Assembly (NCBI RefSeq): GCF_000317615.1 | Contig: NC_019780.1 | Coordinates: 3,493,840-3,557,839 of the forward strand | Length of the DNA: 64,000 nucleotides | Reading direction: 5' to 3' | DNA from: Dactylococcopsis salina PCC 8305 | Lineage (GTDB): Bacteria > Cyanobacteriota > Cyanobacteriia > Cyanobacteriales > Rubidibacteraceae | Part shown: positions 42,232 through 46,361 of the stretch, one piece after another | How the letters are laid out: every line of letters begins with the position of its first letter | Numbering within the stretch: position 1 is the stretch's first letter | Made by a program: the position numbers and the translations under genes | The notes under the pieces: model-generated | Databases searched by the model: none | Told to the model about the DNA's origin: nothing | What the model saw: the letters and a program-made list of their open reading frames with translations, nothing else

Positions 42232-42774
42232 TGACTAATTAGTGTTGGGTTTCGCTTCGCTTCACCCAACCTACTTGTGATCTTATCACTTAGTTAGTAG
42301 CCCCCTAGCCCCCAACTTTGAACTTAGTTAGTGTTGGGTTTCGCTTCGCTTCACCCAACCTACTTGTGATCTTATCACTTAGTTAGTAGCCCCCTAGCCC
42401 CCAATTTTGGGGGAACAATGACCAGTAGGTTCGGTGGAGGTAACGAAACCCAACACCAATCATTGGTCATTGGTCATTGGAAAACAAAGAACAAAAATGT
42501 AGGTTGGGTGGAGGTAACGAAACCCAACACCAATCATTGGTCATTGGTCATTGGTCATTGGAAAACAAAGGACGAAGGACGAAAGACAAAGTAGGTTGGG
42601 TAGAGACGTTCCATGGAACGTCTCTACCCGTTATGGAACGTCTCTACCCGTTATGGAACGTCTCTACCCGTTATGGAACGTCTCTACCCGTTATGGAACG
42701 TCTCTACCCGTTATGGAACGTCTCTACCCGAAACCCAACATCAATCAGTGACCAGTTACCAGTAGTTTTCAAAC
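42232..42774. repeat. Cluster of GTTGGGT and REP repeats
   Basis: The spacer has a roughly 75-base direct duplication: GTGTTGGGTTTCGCTTCG..CACCCAACCTACTTGTGATC occurs at 42241 and 42329. AATCATTGGTCATT and GGACGAAAGACAAAG runs follow, then a REP palindrome (42600-42627) whose right half is amplified in tandem. No gene or RNA is visible. Confidence 0.8.
42611..42730. repeat. Six tandem 20-bp units derived from a REP palindrome
   Basis: TTATGGAACGTCTCTACCCG occurs five times without a mismatch (42631-42730), preceded by CCATGGAACGTCTCTACCCG (42611-42630), the right half of the palindrome. The array is a recent expansion of half a REP. Confidence 0.95.
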
Positions 42775-44262
42775 TTAGTTAGTAAAATTTGATAAAAGGG
42801 CGTTTCTGGCTTGTTCGCGATCGTCAAAATGGATTTTTTCTGTGCCTAAAATTTGATAGTCTTCGTGACCTTTTCCCGCAATTAAAACCCCGTCCCCCGA
42901 TCGCGCCATTTTGATCGCTTCTGCAATCGCAACGGCTCGATCGCGCTCAACAATCGGCTTCACCCCTTCTGTCATTCCCCCTAATATATCATCAATAATC
43001 TGCTGCGGGTCTTCCGTGCGTGGATTATCGGAAGTAACAACCGCCACATCAGCCAGCTGCCCCGCAATTTTCCCCATCATCGGGCGTTTGCTGCGATCGC
43101 GATCCCCTCCACATCCAAACACACAAATCATCCTTCCTGCAATAAAAGGACGGGCTGCGGTTAATAAATTCTCTAAACTATCAGGAGTATGGGCATAGTC
43201 AACAATCACACTAATTTCCTGTTTCGGATCAATTTCCACTCGTTCCATCCGTCCAGGAACCCCTGAGAACTGCGGTAAACACTGGGCGATCGTGCTTAAA
43301 TCCACACCCAAATGTAACGCCGCGCCCACGGCTGCCAACAGATTCGATAAATTAAACTCTCCCACCAAGGGCGATCGAAACTCAATTTCCCCTTGAGGTG
43401 TTTTTAAGGTCCCTTGTACCCCATTGGCTTCATAACGCAAATTTTCCGTGTATAAATCCGCACTGCTATCCGTGATACTATAACGCCAAACCTGCTCAAA
43501 AGTCAGTTCTGCAAGCAACCGTTTGCCATAGAGATCATCTTGATTAATCACAGCGCGGTTTTTTAGATATTCAGGACGGAATAACAAGGCTTTCGCTTGA
43601 AAATAATCCTCCATTGTGGGATGGAAATCCAGATGATCTTGGGTTAAATTCGTGAACACAGACACCTCAAATGCACAGCCTTTCACTCGTCCTTGCGCCA
43701 AAGCATGGGAACTCACTTCTAACACCCCATATTGATTACCAGCTTGTTCCGCTGCCGCTAATTGTTCCTGAAGCTCGATCGCAAACGGAGTGGTATGAGT
43801 CGCCACTTGATGATATCCTTGCCAACGCGCGTAAAGCGTCCCAAACAGCGCTGTCGTCGGAGATTGTTGAGACAGAAAAAACTCAATCAGGTGAGTCGTC
43901 GTCGTTTTCCCGTTTGTTCCTGTCACCCCGACTAAATCCAGCTTTTGTGAAGGATAATCATAAAACTTCGCTCCGATTTGAGCGCAAACCTCGACGATAT
44001 TCTCCACAGGAAGCACACAAACCTCATCAGAAGGCGGATAACGTTTCGCCGCTTCTGTACTGATAATAGCAGCTATTGCACCCGCTTCGATCGCGCTGCG
44101 CCAAAAATCCCCACCATCAACCCTTGTTCCCGGAAGACCAATAAAAACATTTCCAGGCTGACATTTATGGGAATTAGTAGTGATTCCAGTGACAGTTTCC
44201 TCCAAGAAAGTAGGATGAGAACACAGGATGGAAAGAGGATCGAGTAATTCACGTAATTTCAT
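42775..44262 (-). CDS. murE: UDP-N-acetylmuramoyl-tripeptide synthetase
   Basis: MurE adds the third amino acid of the peptidoglycan stem in the cytoplasm. The 495-residue protein shows the Mur ligase ATP loop GVTGTNGKTTTTHL (113-126), VLEVSSHAL, FTNLTQDHLDFH and, near 415, SDNPRTEDP. The DNPR motif marks meso-diaminopimelate ligases, matching cyanobacterial peptidoglycan. The N-terminal UDP-binding part (SHKCQPGNVFIGLPGTRVDGGDF) is intact. Confidence 0.95.
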   Translation of the reverse strand: MKLRELLDPLSILCSHPTFLEETVTGITTNSHKCQPGNVFIGLPGTRVDGGDFWRSAIEAGAIAAIISTEAAKRYPPSDEVCVLPVENIVEVCAQIGAKFYDYPSQKLDLVGVTGTNGKTTTTHLIEFFLSQQSPTTALFGTLYARWQGYHQVATHTTPFAIELQEQLAAAEQAGNQYGVLEVSSHALAQGRVKGCAFEVSVFTNLTQDHLDFHPTMEDYFQAKALLFRPEYLKNRAVINQDDLYGKRLLAELTFEQVWRYSITDSSADLYTENLRYEANGVQGTLKTPQGEIEFRSPLVGEFNLSNLLAAVGAALHLGVDLSTIAQCLPQFSGVPGRMERVEIDPKQEISVIVDYAHTPDSLENLLTAARPFIAGRMICVFGCGGDRDRSKRPMMGKIAGQLADVAVVTSDNPRTEDPQQIIDDILGGMTEGVKPIVERDRAVAIAEAIKMARSGDGVLIAGKGHEDYQILGTEKIHFDDREQARNALLSNFTN

Positions 44263-44589
44263 TTTGTTATTTTGTTATGGCAGCAACAGTTTTTTGATAA
44301 GTTGTTTTCAATTGTGCCATCAATGTAGCTGGAGGAAAAGGATCGTCCCGAATCGGAGATCAACGCGAAAAAATAGAGGAAGGTTAAAATAGTTGCCAGC
44401 GATCGCAACTAGAGTTAATAAAAACAGAATCACGCGCGATCGCGCCCGTTAATTTCATAAGAATTAATACGTGGTAAGAGACGGTTTACTCAGAATTTTA
44501 TTGATCATCAAAACACTTTCTATGATATCAAGTAGTCAATCCTGAAAACCTGTGTTATTCTAATGAAAGGTTGTTAATTAAATAACCGT
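44263..44589. other. Divergent spacer between murE and the leader RNA
   Basis: AT-rich non-coding sequence that should hold the murE promoter (leftward) and the promoter of the leader RNA (rightward). TATTCTAAT near 44554 is a plausible -10 for the rightward transcript. GGTTGTTAATTAAATAACC (44567-44585) is a near-palindrome and may be an operator. HIP1 octamers are present near 44400 and 44448. Assignments are tentative. Confidence 0.35.
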
Positions 44590-44595
44590 TTAGGG

Positions 44596-44609
44596 AGAAA
44601 GGAGGTGAT
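44596..44609 (+). promoter_or_regulatory. Unusually complete Shine-Dalgarno of the 24-codon ORF
   Basis: AGAAAGGAGGTGAT is complementary to essentially the whole 3' end of 16S rRNA (ATCACCTCCTTT). AGGAGG lies 8 nt before the ATG at 44614. No other gene in the window has so strong a site. Confidence 0.8.
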
Positions 44610-44613
44610 GCCC

Positions 44614-44688
44614 ATGAGTATAAGTGATAAACCTATGGGTCACCTGATTGAAAAATGCCGGCTGTGTGCCGGGGCTGTTCTCAAATAG
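44614..44688 (+). CDS. 24-residue leader-type peptide within the structured RNA
   Basis: ATG 44614 to TAG 44688 encodes 24 residues that include KPMGHLIEKCRLCAGAVLK. It has a CxxC pair (CRLC), a basic tail and no signal peptide. Its codons form the 5' strand of the long helix described for the RNA, so ribosomes translating it would open that helix. It may be a true micro-protein or only a translation sensor. The exceptional Shine-Dalgarno is the main reason to believe it is translated. It is not recognised from any family. Confidence 0.55.
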   Translation: MSISDKPMGHLIEKCRLCAGAVLK

Positions 44689-44772
44689 TCAGTTGACTCC
44701 TCCCTGTGAGGAATAACTAGCTGTACGAGTTCCTCTCGGCAGTCAGGTTTCAATCAGATGTGACCCGCTAGA

Positions 44773-44826
44773 CCGCTCTCGTCTTCAAGTGTGAAAGCAC
44801 TCCCAGATGAGAGCGGATAGTTTTTT
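44773..44826 (+). terminator. Intrinsic terminator/attenuator before the photolyase gene
   Basis: CCGCTCTCGTCT (44773-44784) pairs with AGATGAGAGCGG (44805-44816), 12 bp with one G-U, capped by AGTG/CACT around TGAAAG. ATAGTTTTTT follows. It lies 27 bases before the photolyase ATG, so readthrough would control that gene. Confidence 0.75.
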
Positions 44827-44852
44827 AAGGTGAAATATTCGGGGAATTATCA

Positions 44853-46361
44853 ATGATTGGAATTTGGGTTTTAGGAACACAGCTTTCTTTAGATCAAAGC
44901 GCCGTAAAAAGTTGTGAAAATCAGAAAGAAAAAACAAACGTTATTCTCATTGAGTCTCAGGAATACGCCAAACAACGACGGTATCATCAACAAAAATTAG
45001 TCTTAGTTTGGTCGGCGATGCGTCACTTTTCAGAAACTCTAAAAGAGGAAGGCTGGAAGGTGAATTATGAAACAGCAACGGATTTTTTGACTCCCTTAAA
45101 AGCATGGGTGAAGGAAAATCAAATCACTGAGTTACGGGTGATGACTCCCAATGATCGATCGGTCTCTAATTTTATCAAAAACTTAGACCTTGCTTGTGAA
45201 ATTGTTCTTTTTCCAGACAACCATTTTTTATGGTCAACAGAAGCGTTTCAACAGTGGACAACTAACCGTAAACGGATTTTATTAGAAGACTTTTATCGAG
45301 AGGGAAGAAAGCGGTTTAAAGTTTTAGTAGAAGACAATAAACCCATCGGGGGAAAATGGAATTATGATCAAGAAAACCGCAAACCTCCGAAGAAAAATTT
45401 AAATCCTCCCTCACCTCTAAATTTCCCCCCAGACTCAATTACGACTGAAGTTATAGAAACCGTAAAGTCTCTATCTTTCCCCACTTATGGCGAGATTGAT
45501 AATTTTAATTGGGGAGTAACTAGAGAAGACGCAAAAAACGTTCTTTCCCATTTTATCGAAACCAATTTACCCAATTTTGGCACTTATCAAGATGCGATGG
45601 TGACTGGAGAAAATACGCTTTGGCATTCTTTAATTTCTCCTTATATTAATCTGGGTTTATTACATCCTTTGGAGGTAATTAAGGCGGTAGAAAATGCTTA
45701 CTACAAGCAAGATTTACCTTTAAATAGTGTCGAGGGATTGATTCGACAGGTTTTAGGATGGCGAGAATTTTTACATGGAATTTATCATTGGGTTGATGTT
45801 GATTATGGTCAGGGAAATTGGTTTAATCATACCCAACCCTTACCGCATTTTTTCTGGGATAGTCGTGAAACTGATCTCAATTGTTTAAAGCAAGTTTTAC
45901 AACAAGTGGAAAATACGGGTTATGCTCATCATATTCAACGGCTGATGATTTTGAGTAATTTTGCTCTGATTGTTGGGGTTTCTCCACAGGAATTAAAAGA
46001 CTGGTTTCATGCTGCTTTTATTGATGCGTATGATTGGGTAATGGAAACTAATGTTATCGGAATGGGACAATTTGCTGATGGTGGCGTGTTTGCTTCTAAA
46101 CCTTATGCCTCTTCTGCGAATTATGTTAACAAAATGAGTGATTATTGTGCCGATTGTTGTTATAATCCCAAGCATCGATCGCAGGGTGATGCTTGTCCAT
46201 TTAACTTTTTCTACTGGGATTTTATCGCTCGTCAGCGCGATCGACTTCAGTCTTTAGGACGCATGAATTTAGTTTTGGCAAATTTGCGGAAAATTGATGC
46301 TGATGAATTGGCGCAAATACAGGGGTTAGCGGACAATTGGCGAGATCAACATTGTCCTTAA
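44853..46361 (+). CDS. Fe-S bacterial cryptochrome/photolyase (FeS-BCP, PhrB/CryPro type)
   Basis: The 502-residue protein has the FeS-BCP N-terminus (WVLGTQLSLDQSAV) and FAD-domain segments (VEGLIRQVLGWREFLHGIYHW; NFALIVGVSPQELKDWF; NVIGMGQFADGG..KPYASSANYVNKMSDYC). Four cysteines, C344, C432, C435 and C448, have spacings 88-3-13, identical to the 4Fe-4S ligands of Agrobacterium PhrB (C350, C438, C441, C454). That enzyme repairs (6-4) photoproducts, so the same activity is likely. The gene is preceded by an attenuator-like RNA. Confidence 0.93.
   Translation: MIGIWVLGTQLSLDQSAVKSCENQKEKTNVILIESQEYAKQRRYHQQKLVLVWSAMRHFSETLKEEGWKVNYETATDFLTPLKAWVKENQITELRVMTPNDRSVSNFIKNLDLACEIVLFPDNHFLWSTEAFQQWTTNRKRILLEDFYREGRKRFKVLVEDNKPIGGKWNYDQENRKPPKKNLNPPSPLNFPPDSITTEVIETVKSLSFPTYGEIDNFNWGVTREDAKNVLSHFIETNLPNFGTYQDAMVTGENTLWHSLISPYINLGLLHPLEVIKAVENAYYKQDLPLNSVEGLIRQVLGWREFLHGIYHWVDVDYGQGNWFNHTQPLPHFFWDSRETDLNCLKQVLQQVENTGYAHHIQRLMILSNFALIVGVSPQELKDWFHAAFIDAYDWVMETNVIGMGQFADGGVFASKPYASSANYVNKMSDYCADCCYNPKHRSQGDACPFNFFYWDFIARQRDRLQSLGRMNLVLANLRKIDADELAQIQGLADNWRDQHCP

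What the first reader, a model, noticed from the sequence alone, without database searches (positions are those of the whole stretch)
44567..44852. Switch-like leader RNA: one segment can pair either with a Shine-Dalgarno region or with a distal strand, then a terminator, then a photolyase gene
GGGTCACC (44637-44644) pairs in one fold with GGTGATGCCCAT (10 bp with a 2-nt bulge), hiding an exceptionally complete Shine-Dalgarno, and in the other fold with TTTCAATCAGATGTGACCC (17 bp). The exclusive helices, a 24-codon CxxC ORF overlapping the switching strand, and a 12-bp terminator with T tract 27 bases before an Fe-S photolyase gene are the layout of an attenuator. A metal, redox or translation signal is conceivable given CRLC and the Fe-S enzyme downstream, but that is speculation.
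Basis: partly seen in the sequence, partly recalled or inferred. Interest (0 to 1): 0.78.

Follow-up and report, generated by a model that had tools for sequence, protein, structure and literature searches.

The report
Phylum-wide cyanobacterial micro-ORF structured RNA
The 'switch' is one copy of an RNA found in many cyanobacteria that carries a tiny gene of about 23 codons folded onto its own tail; it is not a private switch of the DNA-repair gene that happens to sit behind it here, and its job is still unknown.

Summary
The sequence features are real, but the interpretation changes. Window 44567-44826 looks like a stand-alone RNA gene: extended -10 motif, 5' hairpin, 12-nt Shine-Dalgarno, 24-codon ORF, long-range fold, terminator hairpin with T6. 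It occurs in 9/9 genomes of the family, 97/104 of the order and 139/386 of the phylum sample, nearly always once. Rfam 15 has no match. It fits the description of 'ncl0160', a conserved predicted sRNA with a 23-25-aa peptide (PMC4734099); identity is inferred, since the supplement could not be opened. A second long-range helix (P3/P3b), not in the finding, pairs ORF codons 16-21 with the 3'UTR and is even better kept. Photolyase lies downstream in 4/111 loci; an iron-uptake porin in 71, a pterin dehydratase in 44. Best reading: an independently transcribed, translated micro-mRNA/sRNA whose read-through may also feed the gene behind it ('actuaton' layout). How RNA or peptide acts is unknown.

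The parts
44551..44561 (+). extended -10 like element TGTGTTATTCT of the RNA (TSS expected near 44567, inferred)
   Evidence: read directly; a TG.TA...T motif lies within 80 nt upstream of the core in 75 of 112 hits against 12.1 +/- 3.3 in single-base shuffles (hits are related, so not independent). The generic sigma-70 scan did not list it.
44569..44587 (+). 5' hairpin GGTTGTTA..TAACC
   Evidence: -5.9 kcal/mol
44598..44609 (+). extended Shine-Dalgarno AAAGGAGGTGAT
   Evidence: AAGGAGGTGATG occurs twice in the 3.78-Mb genome, the other copy inside an ORF of about 600 codons
44614..44688 (+). micro-ORF, 24 codons, MSISDKPMGHLIEKCRLCAGAVLK
44637..44650 (+). P1 5' strand (ORF codons 8-13)
   Evidence: covariation
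44751..44766 (+). P1 3' strand
   Evidence: covariation
44660..44663 (+). P3b 5' strand (pairs 44741-44744)
   Evidence: 99.5% of cells paired; 8 G-C to A-U double changes at one pair
44668..44674 (+). P3 5' strand (pairs 44734-44740); 44668-44672 is also the 3' arm of the local hairpin P2 (44658-44672)
   Evidence: P3; P2 only weakly supported:
44734..44744 (+). P3/P3b 3' strand TCTCGGCAGTC
44768..44820 (+). terminator-like hairpin with conserved arms CTAGACCGC / GCGGATAG
   Evidence: -28.3 kcal/mol with the tail; 3' arm in 89 of 112 and 5' arm in 87 of 112 hits; not listed by the simple scan
44821..44826 (+). T tract of the terminator
44853..46361 (+). downstream photolyase-related gene (DPRP); neighbour, not a conserved part of the element

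Best explanation
The locus is the local orthologue of the cyanobacterial RNA described as ncl0160: an independently transcribed, terminated RNA of about 260 nt that is a micro-mRNA for a peptide of about 23 aa. Its fold pairs the second half of the ORF (codons 8-21) with the region downstream of the stop codon (P1 and P3/P3b). [Shown by comparison: promoter-like and terminator-like motifs, single-copy conservation, open frame, covarying fold.] [Inferred:] a very strong SD loads ribosomes, translation must melt P1 and P3, and the fold re-forms behind them, so ribosome occupancy sets the state of the RNA. The product acts in trans as peptide, RNA or both. Incomplete termination may also give a longer transcript for whichever sense gene lies just behind it (the photolyase-related gene here, pterin dehydratase in other lineages), the layout called an actuaton in Synechocystis.
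For: Conservation: 9/9 family genomes; 119 of 386 genomes at E <= 8.5e-22. Fold: 23 pairs, 93.8% of cells paired against 22.5-53.1% for slid partners; 99 double-change cells against 28.0 +/- 5.7 shuffled, 0/500. ORF: frame open over 22 codons in 92/92 of the main set, other frames 8/92 and 0/92; lengths 23 (84), 24 (7), 22 (1), ATG in all 92; codons 16-23 synonymous fraction 0.44 against 0.20 and 0.19 in the other frames. Stand-alone: terminator 3' arm in 89/112, neighbours vary. Read-through layout: nearest downstream ORF in sense in 97/111 against 176 of 261 adjacent pairs elsewhere in the loci, Fisher p 6e-5 (loci are related, so too small); 12 of 81 sense neighbours start within 50 nt of the T tract. 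Print: PMC4734099 section 15 gives the same peptide length, RBS and stop-codon pattern; PMC5386190 passages define actuatons.
Against: Identity with ncl0160 rests on description, not on an alignment with the published sequence. No expression or ribosome data for this genome; the simple scan lists neither promoter nor terminator. Codons 2-8 show no coding signature (synonymous fraction 0.09 against 0.14 and 0.13) and the P1 strand little (0.29 against 0.18 and 0.28); AGTAGTAAA is nearly invariant as RNA. Six weaker hits have a 17-codon ORF lacking CAGAVL, so that end is not universal. For the window alone thermodynamics prefers the local hairpin P2 over P3 by 2.8 kcal/mol. The nearest upstream ORF is also mostly in sense (74 of 95), so the downstream sense bias is not by itself proof of read-through; 50 of 81 sense neighbours start 150 nt or more away. 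Toggling by ribosomes is inference.
Confidence: 0.6

Rival explanations
1. One reading: cis-acting attenuator of the photolyase gene, switching between an SD-hiding helix and the distal helix.
For: Both helices can be drawn; photolyase starts 26 nt behind the T tract, little room for its own promoter; a photolyase gene follows in 4 genomes of the genus.
Against: Photolyase in 4/111 loci; SD helix without covariation; terminator arm has no conserved competitor, mean longest complement 6.5 against 6.8 for shuffled arms, 86 loci.
Confidence: 0.07
2. Ancestral cis-regulatory leader (transcription attenuation) of a pterin dehydratase - porin gene pair; photolyase took over the position in this genus.
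For: Sense-strand porin in 71/111 and pterin dehydratase in 44/111 loci across distant families (example proteins PF01329, NF033921); the first possible start of the dehydratase lies 8-40 nt after the T tract in 13 loci.
Against: In 11 of 71 porin loci a TG-TATAAT box lies within 120 nt of the porin start, so there the porin looks independently transcribed; the RNA is kept where neither gene was found and where the next ORF is antisense (14/111); no antiterminator.
Confidence: 0.16
3. Plain micro-mRNA: only the peptide matters; the fold merely protects the message.
For: Open frame 92/92, length differences in threes, C-terminal synonymous bias.
Against: 3'UTR strands, terminator arms and AGTAGTAAA are conserved at nucleotide level, and the 23-pair fold joining ORF and UTR covaries.
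Confidence: 0.13
4. Purely non-coding trans-acting sRNA; the ORF is a by-product of conserved sequence.
For: Codons 2-8 lack a coding signature; ORF length shrinks to 17 codons in six weaker hits.
Against: Frame kept in 92/92 with length differences in threes; near-invariant SD and ATG.
Confidence: 0.1

Closest known systems
ncl0160 (predicted sRNA of Synechocystis and Nostoc; Brenes-Alvarez et al. 2016, PMC4734099)
   Same: Conserved RNA in 83 homologues, 23-25-aa peptide, RBS before the start codon, mostly ATG, TAA more common than TAG
   Different: Published as a prediction with alignment, peptide logo and fold in supplementary figures that could not be opened here; the Prochlorococcus/Synechococcus lineage was not examined there; P1/P3 covariation and neighbours are not in the text read
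Actuaton (PMC5386190, passages read)
   Same: Discrete RNA with terminator followed by a sense gene with little room for its own promoter
   Different: No TSS or Northern data for this locus; this RNA was not named in the passages seen
Leader-peptide attenuators (trp/tna type, recalled)
   Same: Short ORF overlapping pairing strands, terminator before a gene
   Different: No competing antiterminator found, downstream gene not conserved
Rfam families, including cyanobacterial ones such as cyano-1/cyano-2 and Yfr (names recalled)
   Same: Structured RNAs
   Different: Besides four tRNAs, no match in the window at gathering score; only weak eukaryotic snoRNA families up to E 10 for 44300-45000

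Membership tests
ncl0160 RNA | conserved 23-25-aa peptide with RBS, mostly ATG start | tested here: met
   of 92 main-set hits 84 at 23 aa, 7 at 24, 1 at 22; ATG 92/92
ncl0160 RNA | stop codons TAA > TAG > TGA (47/34/2 in print) | tested here: met
   TAA 57, TAG 35, TGA 0 of 92; print values
ncl0160 RNA | wide occurrence in cyanobacteria | tested here: met
   139/386 in the phylum sample, 97/104 of the order; Synechocystis salina and Microcystis named
ncl0160 RNA | sequence identity with the annotated Synechocystis 6803 / Nostoc 7120 transcript | not testable with these tools
   Table S3 and Figs S1-S2 not available
ncl0160 RNA | transcribed from its own TSS to a Rho-independent terminator | tested here: inconclusive
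   promoter-like and terminator-like motifs only; simple scan negative on the + strand
photolyase attenuator | regulated gene conserved downstream | tested here: not met
   4/111
photolyase attenuator | conserved SD-hiding helix as the alternative fold | tested here: not met
   1 of 510 cells with a double change; one pair unpaired in 25 of 51; the 5' strand hardly varies, so the test is weak
photolyase attenuator | antiterminator competing with the terminator | tested here: not met
   86 loci
known Rfam family | score at or above gathering threshold | tested here: not met
   20 related loci
actuaton | sense gene behind the sRNA without its own TSS | tested here: inconclusive
   26 nt from T tract to photolyase ATG; no TSS data
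actuaton | abundant discrete sRNA plus read-through mRNA | not testable with these tools
   needs RNA-seq/Northern
dual-function sRNA | regulates targets in trans | not tested
   no target search was run

The most novel reading that the evidence does not exclude
A phylum-wide translation-gated RNA: a near-invariant, over-long Shine-Dalgarno holds ribosomes on a 17-25-codon ORF, and whether they pass codons 8-21 decides if the ORF-3'UTR fold (P1/P3) exists. The RNA or its peptide would then report translation status and act in trans on a core process (psbD and outer-membrane porin genes are its commonest neighbours), while its leaky terminator lends the same promoter to neighbouring genes.
Probability: 0.22. 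Interest if true: 0.8.

Novelty: new member of a known kind. Interest (0 to 1): 0.52.

Why it matters
A small RNA conserved over much of the cyanobacteria has no function assigned in the papers I could search and no Rfam family that matches it. A covariation-backed fold in which a micro-ORF is base-paired to its own 3'UTR gives precise mutations to test in Synechocystis or Nostoc, and a model that can find it in new genomes. It also warns that a striking leader-like layout before one gene can be an old stand-alone RNA with changing neighbours.

Tried and rejected
Rfam: besides tRNAs no match at gathering score in the window; up to E 10 only weak eukaryotic snoRNA families for 44300-45000; one tRNA in 20 related loci. 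Phages and plasmids: no blastn match.

A three-strand switch P2/P3 (local hairpin 44658-44672 against P3) looked attractive by eye and P2 wins energetically in the window, but support for P2 is weak: 6 double-change cells against 3.1 +/- 1.4 shuffled (23/500 shuffles as high), although its percentage of paired cells (4/500) and covariation score (12/500) exceed most shuffles. At one shared column, 8 of 8 sequences with A keep the P3b pair and 3 of 8 keep the P2 pair. I do not claim it. Antiterminator. Leader of the porin: a TG-TATAAT box of its own in 11 of 71 porin loci, so undecided for the rest.

The pattern scan listed neither the -10 motif nor the + strand terminator. 16S 3'-end patterns had no match in the held genome, so the 16S complementarity of the SD rests on recalled knowledge. 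The weak hit L122 (G093) was treated as doubtful and left out of A8 and the synteny count, but it is among the 112 and the 111. Literature searches.

Rows dropped: of 129 genomes hit, 109 were analysed plus 3 (112 in all); the 20 left out are near duplicates or weak. Alignment A8 holds 51 of 54 representatives under 87% identity; L121, L125 and L126 (weak f25 forms) were left out.

Full report
What is there. Window 44551-44826 (+) has the parts of a small RNA gene. In order: an extended -10 like element TGTGTTATTCT (44551-44561), a 5' hairpin (44569-44587), the Shine-Dalgarno AAAGGAGGTGAT (44598-44609), a 24-codon ORF (44614-44688), structured downstream sequence, and a hairpin with T6 of -28.3 kcal/mol (44768-44826). 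The whole folds at z -6.3. A photolyase-related gene (PF04244) starts 26 nt further on. The simple pattern scan lists neither the promoter motif nor this terminator.

It is conserved far beyond this locus. blastn found it in 9 of 9 genomes of the family. A covariance model (R1, 9 sequences) found it in 129 of 386 genomes of the phylum sample. A second model built on 51 diverse sequences found 139 of 386 at E <= 0.01, of which 119 at E <= 8.5e-22; one of the 139 has a second, weak match. In the window's order 97 of 104 sampled genomes have it; the seven without include both sampled members of one genus, g14. Family f25 (1.8-3.3-Mb genomes among the hits, picocyanobacteria by recall) gives 18 weak hits (E 2.6e-5 to 5e-3); their homology is probable, not proven. 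A pattern scan of named genomes put it in Synechocystis salina and seven Microcystis records. Rfam 15 has no match there.

The fold. On a structure-blind MAFFT alignment of 51 representatives (A8) I tested named helices. P1 (44637-44650 with 44751-44766), P3b (44660-44663 with 44741-44744) and P3 (44668-44674 with 44734-44740) together: 23 pairs, 93.8% of cells paired, 99 cells changed on both sides against 28.0 +/- 5.7 in shuffles, and sliding the partners drops pairing to 22.5-53.1%. The alignment was not fitted to this structure; the hits were found with R1, which contains P1 but not P3. P3b is paired in 99.5%, P3 in 96.3%, the two parts of P1 in 96.4% and 86.0% of cells. So the second half of the ORF pairs with sequence behind the stop codon across the set. 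The local hairpin P2 has weak support.

The ORF. All 92 main-set sequences keep an ATG ORF of 22-24 codons with TAA (57) or TAG (35). The other two frames are open through the same 22 codons in 8 and 0 of 92. Length differences are in threes. Codons 16-23 (RLCAGAVL) show a synonymous fraction of 0.44 against 0.20 and 0.19 in the other frames; codons 2-8 show none (0.09 against 0.14 and 0.13), the P1 strand little (0.29 against 0.18 and 0.28), the whole ORF 0.27 against 0.16 and 0.21 (82 distinct 23-codon sequences, pairs not independent). Of the 20 weaker hits the script found a start in 19: 13 have 23-24 codons (one is the doubtful L122) and 6 have 17; it missed L125, whose ATG lies closer to the SD. 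CxxC is in 9 of 111 peptides.

Neighbours. Across 111 loci (ORFs of 70 or more residues, called by script), the three nearest downstream ORFs include a sense-strand porin in 71 and photolyase in 4; the three nearest upstream ORFs include a psbD-like gene in 41 and a cobB/cbiA-like gene in 12 (the last name recalled). A profile search puts pterin-4a-carbinolamine dehydratase within 3 kb downstream in 44. One example protein each was identified: PF01329, iron uptake porin NF033921/OprB, PF00124. Contig ends cut some loci, so these are lower bounds. The nearest downstream ORF is in sense in 97 of 111, more than adjacent ORFs elsewhere in the same loci (176 of 261, p 6e-5, loci related), but the nearest upstream ORF is also mostly in sense (74 of 95). 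Of 81 loci with the canonical terminator and a sense neighbour, 12 have it within 50 nt of the T tract, 19 at 50-150 nt and 50 further away. In 11 of 71 porin loci the porin has a TG-TATAAT box of its own within 120 nt.

What is in print. PMC4734099 (outline, passages and section 15 read) describes ncl0160: 83 homologues, conserved 23-25-aa peptide, RBS, stops 47 TAA/34 TAG/2 TGA. This fits so closely that I file the locus as its orthologue, by inference. A full-text search for the name found only this paper. PMC5386190 (passages) defines actuatons: sRNAs from which read-through makes the mRNA of a sense gene lacking its own TSS, including cassettes fused to different genes. Term searches inside PMC5126843, PMC2662882 and PMC3610870 showed no passage on this RNA.

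How it most likely works. Shown by comparison: a discrete conserved RNA with promoter-like and terminator-like motifs, an ORF under frame constraint, and a fold joining ORF and 3'UTR. Inferred: ribosomes recruited by the long SD melt the fold, and peptide and/or RNA act in trans. A fraction of transcripts may read through into whichever gene sits behind, which would explain the photolyase at this locus without making it the RNA's purpose. The trans target and the signal are unknown.

Verdict. Observation confirmed; interpretation partly supported. A new copy of a known but unexplained RNA, with a fold and gene context that I did not find in print (the supplement of the 2016 paper was not available). 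On checking I lowered the main confidence from 0.62 to 0.60 and raised the leader rival from 0.15 to 0.16, because an own porin promoter is seen in only 11 of 71 loci and the upstream neighbour is also mostly in sense.

Noticed in passing
L066, L089, L091, L103, L113 and others (porin 5' regions): GGTGTGAGGA lies near the porin start in 60 of 71 porin loci; it is complementary to part of the Yfr1 motif CACUCCUCACACC quoted in PMC4734099, so the neighbouring porin looks like a Yfr1 target.
   Followed up: partly
L109, L111, L119, L120 (core regions): In some lineages the ORF stops after 17 codons (..RL* or ..QL*), near the loop of the local hairpin P2.
   Followed up: partly
L121:3001-3126, L125:3001-3122, L126:3001-3127: Compact, weakly matching forms in family f25 with GGGTC/GACCC and GCCGGCTGA kept; the one in L121 lies 108 nt upstream of a porin ORF.
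   Followed up: partly
genomes G059 and G237 (genus g14); G114, G165, G167 and others of genus g64: No match in the two sampled genomes of a 3.8-4.1-Mb genus of the order, nor in the listed 1.6-1.7-Mb genomes of g64: possible losses.
   Followed up: no
window 44768-44820: Terminator arms CTAGACCGC / GCGGATAG are conserved in sequence, not only in pairing (87 and 89 of 112), unusual for a simple terminator.
   Followed up: partly
window 42477-42782: Short tandem repeats behind the 495-codon ORF upstream of the RNA, visible as repeated peptide in the listed ORFs.
   Followed up: no
whole genome G000: Two 16S 3'-end patterns gave no match in the held genome; rRNA may be masked or differ.
   Followed up: no
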